Below are positions 33,049 through 41,462 of a stretch of DNA of 64,000 nt, piece by piece. The position numbers and the translations under genes were made by a program. This DNA is from Haladaptatus halobius (GTDB lineage Archaea; Halobacteriota; Halobacteria; Halobacteriales; Haladaptataceae), in the NCBI RefSeq assembly GCF_020618475.1, contig NZ_CP085339.1, forward strand, positions 62,001-126,000, written 5' to 3'. The stretch's first letter is position 1. Every line of letters begins with the position of its first letter. The notes under the pieces were generated by a model, which searched no databases, was not told where the DNA came from, and worked only from the letters and a program-made list of their open reading frames with translations.

Positions 33049-34155
33049 TTAATTTGCAGCACACTGATTCGGTCCTAATTCAAGTTGCCGAGCCTCTTCC
33101 TCGTCGACGTGCTCTTTCCCGACGTTCACACGTTTAATCTGCTCATGGTTAGGTGGCGTCTCAGGAATGTTTGCCGTGATCGCCTCGATAAATCCCTCTC
33201 GCTCGTATCTCAGTACCTCATTGTGCTCTCGGATGTCATGAAGGGAGGCAGTCATTGGAGGCTTAGGGGACCCAGGATCGTGAGCAGGGAGAACCAAGCG
33301 GTCGTCCGGTTCTTCGAGGAGTCGCTGGAGACTTGCATACAGGGTTACTGCGCGGTCACGAATGGCTGCATCGTTACCACCCTCGAGGTCGGGGCGACCC
33401 ACACTCTCGAGGAAGAGCGTATCGCCGGTCAGGAGAGCTTTCTCAGCTACGTTGAACGTCACACTTCCTTCGGTATGACCCGGTGTGTAGATAATCTCAA
33501 TCTCGATCGACCCCAGGGATAGCACCTGCCCATCTGCAAGTGCGGTAGCGGACGAGAGATCACCAGCGTCGGCAGGGTGGAGGTAGCGAGGGACGTCGTG
33601 GTTCACAGCGAGTTCCTGCGCGCCAGAGATGTGATCAGCATGGGCGTGTGTTTCAAGAACCGCCGTGAGCGTTGCCCCATGCGCATTAATCAGGTCGAGA
33701 TAGTTCTGCGTATACTGACTCGGATCGACGACGACAGCTTCCCCGTCATCGATAAGGACGTACGAGAGACATCCGGTTCCCGGTCGTGCCACCTGAATGA
33801 GCTGATCAGGGCCAGTGGCCGGAAGTTCCGCTGCGAGATGGACACGACTCCAGCCGCCCATTCCATCCTTAAGGGTCGTTGCCTCGTATCCAAGCTCAGT
33901 GAGCACGGTCGTCGCCGTGTCGGAGACTTCTCCTGCTGCGCAGACGGTGACGATCTCTTTGTCTTGCGGAAGTGTTTCGAGTGCTGGTTGTGCCTGCTCG
34001 GGCGACTCTTTTAGCGTATCGTAGACATCGATATTGACGCTGTCTGGGATATGCCAGCTTTCAAACTCGTCTTCATGCCGGATATCAAGAACAAGGAGCG
34101 GGTCATCCTCATTCTCCAATCGGTCTGCGAGGGTCTCTGGTGAGAGGTCTGCCAT
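33049..34155 (-). CDS. Rhodanese domain-MBL fold fusion (persulfide dioxygenase/ETHE1-like)
   Basis: A 368-residue fusion. Residues 1-110 form a rhodanese domain with the active-site segment TVCAAGEVSD (Cys72). Residues 120-350 form a metallo-beta-lactamase domain with ETHAHADHISGAQEL (metal ligands H170, H172, D174, H175), IIYTPGHTEGSVTF and LLTGDTLFLESVGRPDLEGG, typical of ETHE1/YcbL-type enzymes. It probably oxidises glutathione- or other thiol-persulfides and moves sulfane sulfur. ATG 34155 is preferred to the GTG three bases earlier. It is co-transcribed with an MFS transporter and divergent from a single rhodanese. Confidence 0.88.
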   Translation of the reverse strand: MADLSPETLADRLENEDDPLLVLDIRHEDEFESWHIPDSVNIDVYDTLKESPEQAQPALETLPQDKEIVTVCAAGEVSDTATTVLTELGYEATTLKDGMGGWSRVHLAAELPATGPDQLIQVARPGTGCLSYVLIDDGEAVVVDPSQYTQNYLDLINAHGATLTAVLETHAHADHISGAQELAVNHDVPRYLHPADAGDLSSATALADGQVLSLGSIEIEIIYTPGHTEGSVTFNVAEKALLTGDTLFLESVGRPDLEGGNDAAIRDRAVTLYASLQRLLEEPDDRLVLPAHDPGSPKPPMTASLHDIREHNEVLRYEREGFIEAITANIPETPPNHEQIKRVNVGKEHVDEEEARQLELGPNQCAAN

Positions 34156-34192
34156 CACGTACTAGGTAGCTTCGACATTGCCATATCACCAC

Positions 34193-34210
34193 TGCCAGCT
34201 ATAACTGGCA
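34193..34210. promoter_or_regulatory. Palindromic promoter element between divergent sulfur genes
   Basis: TGCCAG-CTATAA-CTGGCA is a perfect 6-bp inverted repeat around a TATA-like core, midway between the divergent starts at 34155 and 34247 (about 40 bases each way). A near copy precedes the regulator gene at 34664, suggesting one protein controls all three promoters. Confidence 0.55.
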
Positions 34211-34246
34211 CCACCTCTAATTACCCTTATTGTGTAGTACTTGGCG

Positions 34247-34570
34247 ATGGCTGGAATTAGTCCCGAAGAACTTCGTACCCGACGCCAAAACGACGCCAAT
34301 CTTCGAATTGTCGATATCCGCTCCCCGGGAGACTATGAAGAAGAGCACATTGAGGGAAGTGAGAATCTTCCCGTTCGAGAGGCATTGCTTTCTGGAAACG
34401 TCGACGAGGCACTGGAACTGTTGGATAATCTTCCCGCTGATGCTGAAATTGTTACGGTTTGTGATGCAGGCCACGTCTCGGGAGAAACAGCAAACATGCT
34501 TCGCGAGCAAGGGTACGATGCAAAGGCACTAGATAACGGACTCGAAGGGTGGAAGCAGAGTTCAGAGTAA
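34247..34570 (+). CDS. Single-domain rhodanese
   Basis: A 107-residue rhodanese-fold sulfurtransferase. It has NLRIVDIRSPGDYEEEHIEG and the active-site loop VTVCDAGHVSGETA with the catalytic Cys, and the closing GLEGWKQ. Start ATG 34247 is preferred to the TTG two codons upstream. It is divergent from the rhodanese-MBL fusion and probably works in the same sulfane-sulfur pathway. Confidence 0.9.
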   Translation: MAGISPEELRTRRQNDANLRIVDIRSPGDYEEEHIEGSENLPVREALLSGNVDEALELLDNLPADAEIVTVCDAGHVSGETANMLREQGYDAKALDNGLEGWKQSSE

Positions 34571-34609
34571 TACTCTTTCCTAATCAGTTTAGTGATTTTA
34601 TTCTTTGAA

Positions 34610-34640
34610 CACCAGCTATAACCGGTAGACTATATATAGT
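34610..34640 (+). promoter_or_regulatory. Promoter and operator-like element of the bat-type regulator
   Basis: ACCAGCTATAACCGGT at 34611-34626 is a near copy of the palindrome at 34193-34210. It is followed by the self-complementary ACTATATATAGT at 34629-34640, whose TATA core is 24-35 nt before the ATG at 34664, fitting a leaderless start. Confidence 0.5.
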
Positions 34641-34663
34641 TACGGACAGTCTATGATGCCACC

Positions 34664-35398
34664 ATGTACGAAGCATCATTCAAGATCCGTCACGAATGCC
34701 CATATCGAGAATTCTCCGAGCAGTTTCCAGATATCACAATCCGTGAATGGCACCACCACGATTGCCAGATCTTAGAGCTGTCAAGCCCAACGGCACCGTC
34801 CGAGGATCTTCTTGAAGAGATTCAACGCATCGGAGACGTCCTTCACAGTACGACCGACGACGATGGACTTTACGTGGTCGTGCAATCGTGTAAATGCCCG
34901 ATCGAGAAATCCATCATCAAGCTATTCCAGAACCACACCTGTGTGTATACCCCGCCGACCACCTATCGACAGGGATGGGAACACTATACGGTGATCGGGT
35001 TTGACGAAAGTGATATACAAGGAGTTTTGCAGGAACTAGACGAATCTCGTGAGATCGATGTCCTCTCAAAAACTTCTATTGAGAAACGCCAACTCCCTCA
35101 CAGCACGCTCTTCTCGGTCGACCGGTTGTTTGCTGGTCTTACTGATAGACAGCTCGCTGCCCTCCGACTGGCCTTAGACAACGATTACTACAACCAACCA
35201 CGAGGCGCATCGACGAAGGAGCTGGCTGAACAGACAAACATCGCGCGGGCGACATTCGAAGAACACCTCCGAAAAGCCGAAAATAAGCTCCTCACGAATG
35301 TTGAACCGTTCATTCGACTCCTCACCGAGACACAAGCATCCAATGTTCTGGGTACCCGTCAACCATCAGTGTCGTCGGAAACCGTAGAAACAGACTGA
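34664..35398 (+). CDS. Bat-type HTH transcriptional regulator
   Basis: A 244-residue regulator. The C-terminal HTH_10 (bacterio-opsin activator) domain at about 165-225 reads LTDRQLAALRLALDNDYYN, GASTKELAEQTNIARATFEE and HLRKAENKLL. The N-terminal part is a sensor domain with several cysteines (HECPYREF, HHHDCQIL, SCKCPIE, NHTCVY), which could bind metal or react with sulfur species. The promoter shares a palindrome with the neighbouring rhodanese genes, so it is a good candidate for their regulator. Effector unknown. Confidence 0.85.
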   Translation: MYEASFKIRHECPYREFSEQFPDITIREWHHHDCQILELSSPTAPSEDLLEEIQRIGDVLHSTTDDDGLYVVVQSCKCPIEKSIIKLFQNHTCVYTPPTTYRQGWEHYTVIGFDESDIQGVLQELDESREIDVLSKTSIEKRQLPHSTLFSVDRLFAGLTDRQLAALRLALDNDYYNQPRGASTKELAEQTNIARATFEEHLRKAENKLLTNVEPFIRLLTETQASNVLGTRQPSVSSETVETD

Positions 35399-35793: not shown

Positions 35794-36150
35794 TCACAAC
35801 TGGAGGACAGTCGCAATGCCAGCGGCGATACCCGCAGCGATAAGACACAGTCCAAGCGTCCCAAGGGCATAGATACTTGCGCGTAGTCGATCGCCCTTCT
35901 CCCACAACCGGACAGTTTGCACCGAAAACGAGGAATACGTTGTGAAGGAACCACACGCCCCGACACCAACGAAGAGGGTGACTTCACTATTGAACCCGGC
36001 GAACGCGACGAGTCCAAGCACGAAACTCCCCACTACATTCACGGTGAGCGTCGAGAACGGGAATCGGTCGTGGACAAGCAACTGGCCAACCGTGTAGCGT
36101 AATACCGCGCCAATCGCACCACCGGTACCGAGGAGATGAGCAGGTTCCAT
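35794..36150 (-). CDS. crcB: Fluoride exporter CrcB (second gene of pair)
   Basis: A 118-residue four-helix membrane protein of the CrcB/Fluc family. It has GTGGAIGAVLRYTVGQLL near the start, LTVNVVGSFVLGLVAF and the core helix segment GVGACGSFTTYSSFSVQTV. Fluc channels are dual-topology or paired dimers that expel F-. ATG 36150 overlaps the stop of the first crcB gene (ATGA); the GTG one codon earlier is less likely. Paired genes usually form a heterodimer with opposite orientation. Confidence 0.9.
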   Translation of the reverse strand: MEPAHLLGTGGAIGAVLRYTVGQLLVHDRFPFSTLTVNVVGSFVLGLVAFAGFNSEVTLFVGVGACGSFTTYSSFSVQTVRLWEKGDRLRASIYALGTLGLCLIAAGIAAGIATVLQL

Positions 36151-36560
36151 CACTCGTCCACCTCCGGTGCCGAAGGTGTGACAGTGCTAACCCACCGGGC
36201 TGCCTCACGACCGAGTAAGACCGCCCCAAATCCCAACGCGTAACTACCGATGATGTAGCCAATCGCCACCGTTGGTGTCGTGGTGAGCACGTCGATGATG
36301 AACGTGCTATAGGTGGTGAATGAGGCGAGGAATCCGGTCGCCATGAGAGTCCGGCTGGTTCCAGAAATCGTACCGCTGAAGAGTTCCTCGTAGATGAGGA
36401 ACCCAAGGGCGAAACAGCCCAGTATATTGACGGACGCAGTGGCCGCCAGTGAGCTTGGGACAAAGAGGTCGATGAAGTATCGGAGGTTCGAGCCGGCGAA
36501 CCCGCCGATACCGACCACTAGGATTGCTTCCAAGTGTTCAAGAGGGTGTGTCTGAGCCAT
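36150..36560 (-). CDS. crcB: Fluoride exporter CrcB (first gene of pair)
   Basis: A 136-residue CrcB/Fluc family protein with FAGSNLRYFIDLFVPSSLA, TASVNILGCFALGFLIYEE and GFLASFTTYSTFIIDVL. The start is ATG 36560 (MAQTHPLEHLEAIL). The in-frame extension to 36635 would translate through a fluoride riboswitch and is rejected. Overlaps the second crcB gene by four bases. Expression is expected to rise with fluoride through the riboswitch that ends 12 bases upstream of this start. Confidence 0.92.
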   Translation of the reverse strand: MAQTHPLEHLEAILVVGIGGFAGSNLRYFIDLFVPSSLAATASVNILGCFALGFLIYEELFSGTISGTSRTLMATGFLASFTTYSTFIIDVLTTTPTVAIGYIIGSYALGFGAVLLGREAARWVSTVTPSAPEVDE

Positions 36561-36572
36561 GGCTGATGTGTG

Positions 36573-36623
36573 GTAGGAGTCATCAGCCAGAGTGGCGGTT
36601 GGGTCAGGCGGACTCCATCGCCC
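36573..36623 (-). ncRNA. Fluoride riboswitch (crcB motif)
   Basis: On the minus strand the 5' leader reads GGGCGATGGAGTCCGCC, a short linker, AACCGCC, a small loop, then GGCTGATGACTCCTAC. These are the conserved parts of the crcB RNA: the GGCGAUGG start, the first stem closing with CCGCC, the AACCGCC/GGCUGAUG pairing and the terminal CUAC. GAGTC (5' part) pairs with GACTC (3' part), as required for the pseudoknotted fold. The aptamer ends 12 bases before the crcB ATG at 36560, so it could gate ribosome access or transcription. Identified by eye, without a covariance search. Confidence 0.85.
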
Positions 36624-36781
36624 GAATAGACCCACAAGGGGGCGTTGGTTTGAATTGACTCTGGTGGCTATGTTAAAATTGCGATTGTATATGGGTCGAA
36701 CGAAGCGACAATGAGGTAGATCTCCTGATTAGTAATTCAATCATTATCTTCCTGTACAAAACCGTGAGGTAGATCATATCG

Positions 36782-36961: not shown

Positions 36962-37165
36962 TTACCGTGAGTCAAGCGCATAATAGACGACGGTCATTGT
37001 GAGAGCCATCAATACTGCCTGAAAGAGTACCCAATCTCCTAGCAACAGGCCGAATACGAGGATCGTAATACCGGTCAGGATGCCTATCAGAACTGCATAT
37101 GCCCTGCGCGAGAGGTTCCTCGTCCACGCATCAACGCGATGGTAGAGCTGTCTCACAATATCCAT
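36962..37165 (-). CDS. Small two-helix membrane protein
   Basis: A 67-residue protein: a basic start MDIVRQLYHRVDAWTRNLSR, then two hydrophobic helices (about 22-42 and 44-62) and a short polar end. Unknown function. Composition is regular for haloarchaeal membrane proteins, and it has an AT-rich promoter-like upstream region. Confidence 0.55.
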   Translation of the reverse strand: MDIVRQLYHRVDAWTRNLSRRAYAVLIGILTGITILVFGLLLGDWVLFQAVLMALTMTVVYYALDSR

Positions 37166-38770: not shown

Positions 38771-39217
38771 ATGCCAGAGACGCTCTTCCAGAAAATACTC
38801 GTCCCGGTCGCATCGGAGTCAGATGCGGAAACGACGTGTCAAGCACTGCTGCCATATCTCGATCGAGACACGAGCGAAGCCAAGATCGTCCACGTCATCG
38901 AGAAGGCAGACGGCGCACCCGACAAAGCATCGCCCGAGCAATTACAGGAGGAAGCCGAGAAGATGTTCGATAGAGCTATCGAACAGTTCACGAACGCGGA
39001 CTTCACAAACTTCGAGACCGAGGTGCGATACGGAACGAACGTTGCTGACGCCATTGTTGACGCGGGGCGCGAATACGGTGCATCAGCCATCGTCTTCACA
39101 CCGCGTGGCGGCAAGCGCTGGACACGCCTCCTCACCGGTGACGTGGCGAATTCTCTGTTAACGAATACTGATCGTCCAGTCATCACCCTTCCGCCGGAGG
39201 AAGACAGCCATGGATGA
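38771..39217 (+). CDS. Universal stress protein (single UspA domain)
   Basis: A 148-residue UspA protein (MPETLFQKILVPVASESDAE). The nucleotide loop is altered to TPRGGKRWTRLLTGDVANS, which keeps only part of the G-2x-G-9x-G pattern. Its stop overlaps the APC-UspA gene by eight bases, so the pair is co-translated and the protein may be a regulatory partner of the transporter. A decayed copy of this junction lies at 47910-48199. Confidence 0.9.
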   Translation: MPETLFQKILVPVASESDAETTCQALLPYLDRDTSEAKIVHVIEKADGAPDKASPEQLQEEAEKMFDRAIEQFTNADFTNFETEVRYGTNVADAIVDAGREYGASAIVFTPRGGKRWTRLLTGDVANSLLTNTDRPVITLPPEEDSHG

Positions 39218-41462
39218 GCAGGAACTCGCCCGCGATTTAGGCTTCCTCGAAGCTTACACGATCGGCCTCGGAACGATGATTGGCGCCGGAATCTTCGTGC
39301 TGCCCAGCATCGCCGCGGAAGCAGCGGGCCCTGCTAGCATGATTTCGTTTGCCCTCGGCGGTGTTGTATCGTTGCTGGCCGCCCTCTCGCTGTCCGAACT
39401 CGCCACTGGCATGCCGAAAGCGGGTGGGAGCTATTACTACGTTAATCGGGCTCTCGGCAGCTTCTTCGGTAGTATCGTCGGGTGGGGGATGTGGGCCGGG
39501 CTGATGTTCGCGAGCGCATTCTACATGCTCGGATTTGGCCAGTATCTCACGTACTTCGTTCCTATGGGATCGACGGGGGTGGCGATTGCTGCACTCATCA
39601 TGTCCGCTATTTTGACCGGCGTCAACTATTACGGGGTGAAAGAAACGGGTGCGCTCCAGAACGTTATCGTCATCGCTCTCATCGGTCTCATCATCGTGTT
39701 CGTTGCATTCGGCGTCCTTCACGTCGATACACTCGGTGAGTTCAATCCGAACGGCTGGGGGGCAGTTGTCGCAACCATCGGCACAGTGTACGTGACGTTC
39801 ATCGGGTTCGAAGTGATCGCGACGAGCGCTGAGGAGATCAAAAACCCGAGTCGGAACCTTCCGTTATCGATGATCGCAGCGGTCGTCACTCCGACGCTGC
39901 TGTACGTGCTTGTCATGTTCGTCAGCACGGGAACGCTCAGCATCGATGCGCTCGCCAGTTCCAGGATTCCGGTGGCGGACGTCGCCCAACAAGTCCTCGG
40001 AACGATTGGCGCGATAGCGATGGTCGTCGGAGCTGTCCTCGCGACAGTCTCGAGTGCAAACGCCTCGATACTGTCCGCTGCACGGGTGAACTTCGCCATG
40101 GGGCGGGACAGGATCCTCTCTAATTGGCTCAATGAAGTGCACAACCGCTTCCGGACACCATACCGCGCAATCATGGCGACTGGTGCGATCATCTTGCTGT
40201 TGATCACCGTCGGCGTCGGTATCGGGACGCTCGCCGAGGTCGCGAGTTTCGCGTACTTGGTCACCTACTCACTCGTTCACATCGCCGTCATCGTCATGCG
40301 ACGAGCAGACCCAGCTGACTATGACCCGGCATTTGAAATTCCGAACAGATTCTTTCTCTTCCCCATTGTTCCTATTCTCGGTTTCTTCGCATGCGTGTGG
40401 GTACTCGTTCAGATGGACACTCTCGTTCAGTTACTCGGTCTTGGGATCGTTGGCATCGGTATCGTGTGGTATTTCGGCTACGCCCGCGACCGAGCAGTTC
40501 GAGAAGGGTTGCTTGGGGAAGCGATTGCGCCGACGCCGACACTCACGGCGGATGGCCACGGACGATACCGGGTCGTTGTGCCAGTCGCAAATCCAGAAAC
40601 CGAACGTGAACTCCTTCGCCTCGCCGCTGCAAGCGCCCATGCGCATGACGACGAGCAGGCCGAACTCGTCGCAGTGAACGTTATCGAGGTACCACAACAA
40701 ACCTCGCTCTCACAGGATCTCGAGTTCGAAGAGGAACGTGTCCAGAAACAACAGCAACTCCTCGACGAAGCACGAGATATCGCAAACGATCTCAATGTTG
40801 GCCTTCGAACACGGGCAATTGTTGGACGAAACGTCGGCGAGGTCGTCCTCAATGTGATCGAAGAGGAGAATGCGAACCACGTCCTCCTCGGGTGGAAAGG
40901 CCGACGAAGTGCCCGCGAACACATTCTTGGCTCGAACATCGATCCAATTATCGAACGAGCACCGTGTGAGGCGACGCTCGTGAAACTAAACGCTGACCAA
41001 TCACACGACGATGTCGAGGAGATCGTCGTTCTCGCCGGGGAAGGCCCTCATTCCCCTGTCGCTGCGCGACGGGCTGGAGAGTTTGTTGCGGCGACCCAAG
41101 GGAAAGCACGGCTAACGCTACTGAACGTCCAGCGTACGTCCGAGGAATCTAAGCAAGATCCGACTGAACGCGGTGAGGAAATCATCGACCAAGTTGCGAG
41201 TGCGGCCGGTATTCAGTTCATGGATTATGACTCACAGGTCGTTGTCACCGACGATATCGAGCCGACCATTCTTGAGACCGTTAAATCGTACGACACGATC
41301 TGTGTCGGAGCGACGCGCTCTGGCTCCGTTTCACAAGCTCTCTTTGGGTCACTTCCGGAAACCATCGGCGAGAACGCATCAGGGACGGTGGCAATGGTTC
41401 GCGGTAGCAAACAAACACCGCAGTCGATTCGAGAAGGTCTTATTTCCCGTCTTACTAGTTGA
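39210..41462 (+). CDS. APC-family permease fused to two UspA domains
   Basis: A 750-residue fusion. Residues 10-430 form a 12-helix APC (amino acid-polyamine-cation) permease with the helix-1 motif GTMIGAGIFVLPS, LPKAGGSYYYV-like MPKAGGSYYYVNRALG and a typical FIGFEVIATSAEEIKNP in helix 6. Residues 455-590 and 605-735 are UspA domains; GWKGRRSAREHILGSNID carries the nucleotide loop of the first and GATRSGSVSQALFGSLPE that of the second. Such fusions suggest a transporter gated by nucleotide. Substrate unknown: amino acids, or K+ as in the KimA branch of the superfamily. Confidence 0.9.
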   Translation: MDEQELARDLGFLEAYTIGLGTMIGAGIFVLPSIAAEAAGPASMISFALGGVVSLLAALSLSELATGMPKAGGSYYYVNRALGSFFGSIVGWGMWAGLMFASAFYMLGFGQYLTYFVPMGSTGVAIAALIMSAILTGVNYYGVKETGALQNVIVIALIGLIIVFVAFGVLHVDTLGEFNPNGWGAVVATIGTVYVTFIGFEVIATSAEEIKNPSRNLPLSMIAAVVTPTLLYVLVMFVSTGTLSIDALASSRIPVADVAQQVLGTIGAIAMVVGAVLATVSSANASILSAARVNFAMGRDRILSNWLNEVHNRFRTPYRAIMATGAIILLLITVGVGIGTLAEVASFAYLVTYSLVHIAVIVMRRADPADYDPAFEIPNRFFLFPIVPILGFFACVWVLVQMDTLVQLLGLGIVGIGIVWYFGYARDRAVREGLLGEAIAPTPTLTADGHGRYRVVVPVANPETERELLRLAAASAHAHDDEQAELVAVNVIEVPQQTSLSQDLEFEEERVQKQQQLLDEARDIANDLNVGLRTRAIVGRNVGEVVLNVIEEENANHVLLGWKGRRSAREHILGSNIDPIIERAPCEATLVKLNADQSHDDVEEIVVLAGEGPHSPVAARRAGEFVAATQGKARLTLLNVQRTSEESKQDPTERGEEIIDQVASAAGIQFMDYDSQVVVTDDIEPTILETVKSYDTICVGATRSGSVSQALFGSLPETIGENASGTVAMVRGSKQTPQSIREGLISRLTS

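What the first reader, a model, noticed from the sequence alone, without database searches (positions are those of the whole stretch)
36573..36623. Fluoride riboswitch controlling a crcB pair in a haloarchaeon
The leader of the first crcB gene holds all conserved parts of the crcB RNA, including GGCGATGG, AACCGCC and GGCTGATG with the GAGTC/GACTC pairing, and ends 12 bases before the ATG. Riboswitches are few in Archaea; here the ligand and gene function match exactly. The usual gene call would extend crcB through it and hide it. Without a terminator-like stem, the aptamer may act on translation start.
Basis: partly seen in the sequence, partly recalled or inferred. Interest (0 to 1): 0.75.

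Follow-up and report, generated by a model that had tools for sequence, protein, structure and literature searches.

The report
Haloarchaeal fluoride riboswitch masking start codon
A fluoride-sensing RNA sits just before a fluoride-exporter gene in a salt-loving archaeon, and the sequence suggests it works by hiding the gene's start codon until fluoride is present, a control style not expected in these organisms.

Summary
Rfam's fluoride riboswitch model (RF01734) matches 36567-36631 (-) at 55.6 bits (cut-off 34; E 1e-12 over the window), the window's only Rfam hit above cut-off. Its last core base lies 14 nt before the ATG of a crcB pair. The class is known, in archaea too. In the predicted ligand-free fold both strands of aptamer helix P3 change partners and the whole AUG is paired. 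In haloarchaeal relatives the AUG lies 10-20 nt after the aptamer in 89 of 91 leaders, and CAGCC/CAGCU directly precedes it in 54 of 91, against 0 of 15 first and 0 of 55 second crcB genes without aptamer. Shine-Dalgarno-like motifs are rare (7 of 91); U runs never exceed four. I conclude: a known riboswitch with a start-codon-sequestering, mostly SD-less translational platform; fluoride turns crcB on. About 22 of 91 leaders show neither CAGCC/CAGCU nor a fold effect above shuffles. Nothing was tested at the bench.

The parts
36567..36631 (-). Fluoride riboswitch aptamer (RF01734 match)
   Evidence: cmscan 55.6 bits, cut-off 34, E 1e-12 over the window
36607..36622 (-). P1 hairpin, GGCG/CGCC, whose loop carries the 5' pseudoknot strand GGAGTC (36616-36611)
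   Evidence: Rfam structure line; coordinates
36586..36596 (-). P3, GCCA (36596-36593) with TGGC (36589-36586)
   Evidence: Rfam structure line; constrained fold
36576..36581 (-). 3' pseudoknot strand GACTCC, pairs with GGAGTC in the P1 loop; U48 follows at 36575
   Evidence: 546 of 546 pseudoknot cells paired over 91 leaders, six strand pairings seen
36561..36568 (-). Putative anti-aptamer strand CATCAGCC, complementary to GGCTGATG (36588-36581), abutting the ATG
   Evidence: sequence; free fold; comparative data
36556..36560 (-). ATGGC: start codon region; A pairs with U of the P3 3' strand and UGGC with the P3 5' strand GCCA in the predicted ligand-free fold
   Evidence: minimum-energy fold
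36150..36560 (-). crcB gene 1 (136 aa, CrcB/Fluc family), likely true start at the ATG at 36560
   Evidence: Pfam CRCB 68 bits; start shared by relatives
35794..36150 (-). crcB gene 2, ATG overlapping the stop of gene 1 (ATGA); GGAGGTG upstream at 36165-36159
   Evidence: Pfam CRCB 90.5 bits; sequence
36669..36680 (-). Possible TATA element AATTTTAACATA
   Evidence: sequence; weak match only, 4 of 6 to TTTATA; inference

Best explanation
It is a genuine fluoride riboswitch of the RF01734 class that switches crcB translation on. Without fluoride, the aptamer's 3' half (UGGCUGAUG, which holds the P3 3' strand and the A40/U41/G42 region) pairs with CAUCAGCCA, which runs into the start codon. The P3 5' strand GCCA then pairs with UGGC of AUGGC, so the whole AUG is buried. 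[quoted passage not shown] Shown: aptamer, gene, complementarity, predicted folds and comparative pattern. Inferred: fluoride binding, direction of switching, translational level.
For: Rfam hit. The minimum-energy leader fold contains the 9-bp helix plus 4 pairs that cover the AUG, z -2.67. The predicted structure flips when CAUCAGCC is complete: at 62 nt from P1 the free minimum is -23.3 kcal/mol, against -10.6 for the aptamer helices without the pseudoknot, itself about -8.3 as an isolated duplex. Opening the start region costs 12.1 kcal/mol free and 2.0 with the aptamer locked; this difference of 10.1 is the largest of 89 leaders, letter-shuffle null 0.3. Over the 89 the mean is 2.72 against 0.55, and in 44 of 89 at most 2 of 30 shuffles do as well. 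The 8-pair helix at the register ending at -1 pairs 70.8% of cells against 26-51% when slid, and 448 of 632 cells against 270.5 sd 11.4 for letter shuffles. CAGCC/CAGCU precedes ATG in 54 of 91 leaders, against 0 of 15 first and 0 of 55 second crcB genes without aptamer, and 5 of 1920 ATGs of the window, crcB's own included. The pattern occurs in 7 of 8 family handles. Within the 24 unique TCAGCY leaders the aptamer base 41 and base -7 are U-A 5, C-G 13, mismatch 6; 29 of 20000 permutations reach 18.
Against: Over all 79 unique leaders the base-41 to -7 pairing is no better than permuted (27 against 25.0, 1658 of 5000 reach it); the subset that shows it was chosen because the neighbouring pair forms. 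The other helix columns hardly vary, so covariation says little. Relatedness of the sequences was not corrected for. Only 25 of 63 leaders in the first fold test were in the best 5%, and in 13 of 89 the modelled effect is zero or reversed. Two of the 15 aptamer-free first crcB genes have CAGCC one or two bases further from the ATG (L132, L136). Energies are for 37 C with standard parameters, without pseudoknot or fluoride. Gene 2 has its own GGAGGTG, so it may escape the control.
Confidence: 0.75

Rival explanations
1. The aptamer is real but regulates transcription (termination) rather than translation.
For: In many crcB RNAs predicted terminators overlap the motif (PMC2864571, passages).
Against: Longest U run in the window leader is 2; over 91 leaders it is at most 4. 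AUG lies 10-20 nt after U48 in 89 of 91, which leaves little room for a terminator.
Confidence: 0.1
2. CAGCC before ATG is a general haloarchaeal or Kozak-like start context, not an anti-aptamer strand.
For: Nucleotides flanking a Natrinema start codon, -3A and +4G, affect expression (PMC4574771, title and start of abstract in the search listing); CAGCCATGG has a purine at -3 and G at +4. Two of 15 aptamer-free first crcB genes have CAGCC displaced by one or two bases.
Against: 0 of 15 first and 0 of 55 second crcB genes without aptamer have CAGCY directly at the ATG; 5 of 1920 ATGs and 1 of 50 long ORFs of the window do. Some lineages have other sequences there that are complementary to the aptamer.
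Confidence: 0.08
3. Relic aptamer: intact in sequence, perhaps binding fluoride, but no longer switching here.
For: Orphan aptamers without an intact crcB exist (G255, G201); the assembly carries a second, aptamer-free crcB pair on contig C1.
Against: The conserved aptamer parts and both crcB frames are intact, and the modelled switching effect of this leader is the largest of 89.
Confidence: 0.07

Closest known systems
Fluoride riboswitch / crcB motif, Rfam RF01734
   Same: Aptamer sequence, P1, P3, pseudoknot, gene context crcB
   Different: Expression platform: strand abutting and including the AUG, no terminator and no SD-like motif in the window leader
Thermococcus kodakarensis fluoride riboswitch (Speed et al. 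2018; paper not held; known here only through PMC8241225 and PMC4247193 passages)
   Same: Archaeal, fluoride aptamer, presumed translational
   Different: There the RNA is upstream of TK0513 rather than directly before crcB; whether it uses an SD was not checked here
Bacterial translational fluoride riboswitches (Pseudomonas syringae, Burkholderia pseudomallei named as translational controls in PMC13273304, passages)
   Same: Same aptamer class, control at translation
   Different: Expected to mask an SD (recalled); here 84 of 91 haloarchaeal leaders have no SD-like 4-mer at -16..-4
Synthetic theophylline riboswitches in Haloferax volcanii (PMC8241225, passages)
   Same: Translational riboswitch working in a haloarchaeon
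   Different: Synthetic; this one is natural

Membership tests
Fluoride riboswitch RF01734 | Covariance-model score above gathering cut-off | tested here: met
   55.6 bits, cut-off 34
Fluoride riboswitch RF01734 | Pseudoknot between P1 loop and 3' tail | tested here: met
   GGAGTC/GACTCC, 6 of 6 pairs; 546 of 546 cells over 91 leaders
Fluoride riboswitch RF01734 | A40 and U48 linchpin bases | tested here: met
   A at 36583 and T at 36575 (coordinates); numbering carried over by me from the T. petrophila aptamer (recalled); importance of the pair read in PMC8752731 passages
Fluoride riboswitch RF01734 | Gene for fluoride resistance downstream | tested here: met
   two Pfam CRCB proteins
Fluoride riboswitch RF01734 | Fluoride-dependent structure change or expression | not testable with these tools
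   needs probing or reporter assay
Terminator-type fluoride riboswitch | Intrinsic terminator overlapping the aptamer 3' end | tested here: not met
   longest U run 2 in the leader
SD-masking translational riboswitch | SD sequence paired in one state | tested here: not met
   no SD-like 4-mer in the window leader; 7 of 91 leaders have one

The most novel reading that the evidence does not exclude
Haloarchaea run a widespread natural class of translational riboswitches that act without a Shine-Dalgarno sequence. The fluoride aptamer's own P3 strands exchange partners with the start codon and its 5' flank, so the start codon itself is the regulated site. One family (Natrialbaceae by the named hits) carries a U41C aptamer variant with compensated pseudoknot that mostly falls below the Rfam cut-off.
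Probability: 0.55. Interest if true: 0.65.

Novelty: new variant of a known kind. Interest (0 to 1): 0.5.

Why it matters
[quoted passage not shown] A natural switch that hides the AUG itself would give a ligand-controlled handle on SD-less initiation, and a salt-adapted inducible element. It would also show that one conserved aptamer has been wired to different platforms: an SD-like GGAG complementary to the aptamer CUCC in a few leaders, AUG-adjacent CAGCC in over half of the haloarchaeal leaders examined.

Tried and rejected
Terminator platform: rejected, no U run. CAGCC as ordinary start context: rejected on controls. CAGCC as a covarying strand over all leaders: not supported (27 against 25.0); only the TCAGCY subset shows it. 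A link between the window's 67-aa upstream ORF (36962-37165) and the small ORF behind the extra Halogeometricum aptamer: no meaningful similarity. A wider look at non-haloarchaeal leaders in the phylum failed as a systematic test: my patterns parsed only 7 of 25 loci (3), so it supports no count.

Rows dropped: of 72 Rfam matches, 6 had no CrcB motif behind them (two first aptamers of tandem pairs, two orphans, two likely false matches). Of 53 named stretches, 5 did not parse and 21 were duplicates. Of 93 leaders, G057 (misaligned aptamer) and G064 (GTG start) were left out, giving 91; two with spacers of 62 and 95 nt were left out of the 89. The first fold test used the 63 leaders with spacer up to 20 nt. 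Control set: 75 crcB starts without a recognised aptamer. Five rows of three loci whose aptamer my pattern had missed (L028, L041, L101) were removed, and six second genes that one search had sorted as first were moved, giving 15 first and 55 second. Searches had script faults (loci not oriented; too strict a pattern) and were redone.

Full report
Check of the observation. Rfam's fluoride riboswitch model matches 36567-36631 on the minus strand with 55.6 bits against a cut-off of 34 (E 9.5e-15 in the local search; 1e-12 over the window). It is the only Rfam match above cut-off in 64 kb. The two following frames, 36560-36150 and 36150-35794, are CrcB proteins by Pfam (68 and 90.5 bits). The longest frame starts at a GTG at 36635 and runs through the aptamer, so an automatic gene call could hide it; the start at ATG 36560 is the one that relatives share.

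Genome context. The window is part of a 599-kb contig of an unnamed 7.28-Mb assembly, listed as 9.5% contaminated. The genome has one RF01734 match and four CrcB matches: the pair here and a pair on contig C1, whose first gene shows neither aptamer nor CAGCC before its ATG. By DNA the crcB region is closest among my loci to Haloarcula sebkhae (77.8% over 897 bases, L087/L002). A second genome of the same genus handle, G326, has a leader almost like that of Haladaptatus sp. DYF46 (L095), so the host may be Haladaptatus and the crcB region may have been acquired; this is inference.

The expression platform. The eight bases before the ATG read CATCAGCC, the exact complement of GGCTGATG in the aptamer. 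The minimum-energy fold of the leader pairs UGGCUGAUG with CAUCAGCCA and, below it, the P3 5' strand GCCA with UGGC of AUGGC. Both P3 strands thus change partner and all three bases of the AUG are paired (-37.5 kcal/mol, z -2.67, 2 of 200 shuffles as good). Folding successive transcript lengths, the helix takes over once CAUCAGCC is complete: -23.3 against -10.6 kcal/mol for the aptamer helices without pseudoknot, whose six pairs alone are worth about -8.3. The equilibrium thus leans to the closed state, with a window of about 14 nt of transcription in which fluoride could lock the aptamer first. The timing is inference, in line with the B. cereus switch, where A40-U48 is the linchpin (PMC8752731, passages).

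Comparative test. Rfam finds the class in 67 of 391 genomes of this class, 35 with a match over the cut-off. CrcB itself is in 114 of 116 genomes searched, so most haloarchaeal genomes seem to have crcB without a detectable aptamer. Of 72 matches, 66 have a CrcB behind them. With 27 further leaders from the 53 named stretches I had 93, of which 91 were used and 89 have the AUG 10-20 nt after U48. CAGCC or CAGCT stands directly before the ATG in 54 of 91. The same letters stand there in 0 of 15 first and 0 of 55 second crcB genes without aptamer and before 5 of 1920 ATGs of the window. Two of those 15 have CAGCC one or two bases further upstream (L132, L136). In the C41 group CAGCC carries 1.2-1.4 bits per column and the five columns before it 0.2-0.4; in the U41 group CAGCC carries 0.6-0.9. 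Two leaders with spacers of 62 and 95 nt still have CAGCC at the ATG.

Other lineages. G022 and G082 carry GTCATC near the ATG, complementary to their aptamer GATGAC, and G019 carries GTCGTC, complementary to its GACGAC; yet the minimum-energy folds of these three use other pairings, so this is suggestive only. The leaders G359 and G297 have GACTCCTGTC or its like facing GGACAGAGTC, hairpins of -18.4 and -17.7 kcal/mol that 0 of 300 shuffles equal. In five leaders of family handle f8 a GGAG is present that is complementary to the aptamer's CUCC, which would be SD masking. About 22 of 91 leaders show neither CAGCC/CAGCT nor an accessibility effect in the top 3 of 30 (matched by genome handle); examples are L105, L115 and both G326 leaders.

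Strength of the evidence. The pairing excess at the AUG register is strong by simple controls: 448 of 632 cells against 270.5 sd 11.4; slid registers 26-51%. In the fold test of 63 leaders 25 were in the best 5%. In the accessibility test at most 2 of 30 shuffles did as well in 44 of 89, mean difference 2.72 against 0.55 kcal/mol, the window leader first with 10.1; in 13 of 89 the effect is zero or reversed. Against it: base 41 does not covary with base -7 over all 79 unique leaders (27 against 25.0 expected), only within the 24 ending in TCAGCY (18 of 24; 29 of 20000 permutations). The leaders are related and no tree correction was made.

SD use. SD-like 4-mers stand at -16..-4 in 7 of 91 aptamer leaders, in 5 of 15 first crcB genes without aptamer and in 44 of 55 second genes. 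The window follows this: none for gene 1, GGAGGTG for gene 2.

A variant aptamer. In family handle f4 (named hits of this type are Natrialbaceae) the core reads GGCTGACGGTCCC: base 41 is C, and the pseudoknot GGGGCC/GGTCCC (48 of 91 leaders) is compensated relative to GGAGTC/GACTCC (29 of 91). A40 and U48 are kept. By my count 29 of 33 matches of this type score below the Rfam cut-off, so the count over the cut-off is a low estimate.

What is known. The crcB motif was reported in bacteria and archaea in 2010 (PMC2864571, passages). The fluoride switch of T. kodakarensis is called the only natural archaeal riboswitch experimentally determined by 2021 (PMC8241225, passages), and a 2024 paper lists it among the few validated in archaea (PMC11549558, passages). 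Searches for riboswitch with haloarchaea and fluoride (9 papers), crcB with Halobacteria and riboswitch (no paper), riboswitch with haloarchaea and start codon (16 papers) and fluoride riboswitch with translational riboswitch and start codon (2 papers) listed no paper whose title or abstract start describes this platform. Speed 2018 was not held, and Gupta and Swati 2019 I saw only as a reference, so I do not claim that it is unpublished.

Verdict. Aptamer and gene: near certain. Translational control by start-codon sequestration: about 0.75 for this leader. It is a known riboswitch class with a platform that I have not found described for haloarchaea.

Noticed in passing
L031:2009-2500; L032 reverse complement 2009-2500: Two genomes (one matches Halogeometricum pallidum, L121) carry two fluoride aptamers about 415 nt apart; the first precedes a 68-72 aa ORF that looks like a small membrane protein, the second crcB.
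   Followed up: partly
most of L036-L070 (Natrialbaceae-type loci): Aptamer variant with C at position 41, compensated pseudoknot GGGGCC/GGTCCC and often a long P3 extension; mostly below the Rfam cut-off.
   Followed up: partly
L007:1501-1565 and L013:1501-1565: High-scoring aptamers (53.9 and 49.7 bits) without an intact crcB behind them; in L007 a short broken crcB start remains.
   Followed up: partly
36150-36175: The second crcB has GGAGGTG before its ATG, as many second crcB genes have an SD-like motif (44 of 55 at -16..-4), while the first, riboswitch-led gene has none; how the two halves stay balanced is open.
   Followed up: no
L071:2001-2044 and L072:2001-2033: RF01734 matches of 23.7 and 23.1 bits with no crcB behind them, likely false.
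   Followed up: partly
33049-35398 and 38771-41462: Neighbours: metallo-beta-lactamase/rhodanese fusion, rhodanese, HTH_10 regulator, and a Usp plus amino-acid permease-Usp fusion.
   Followed up: no
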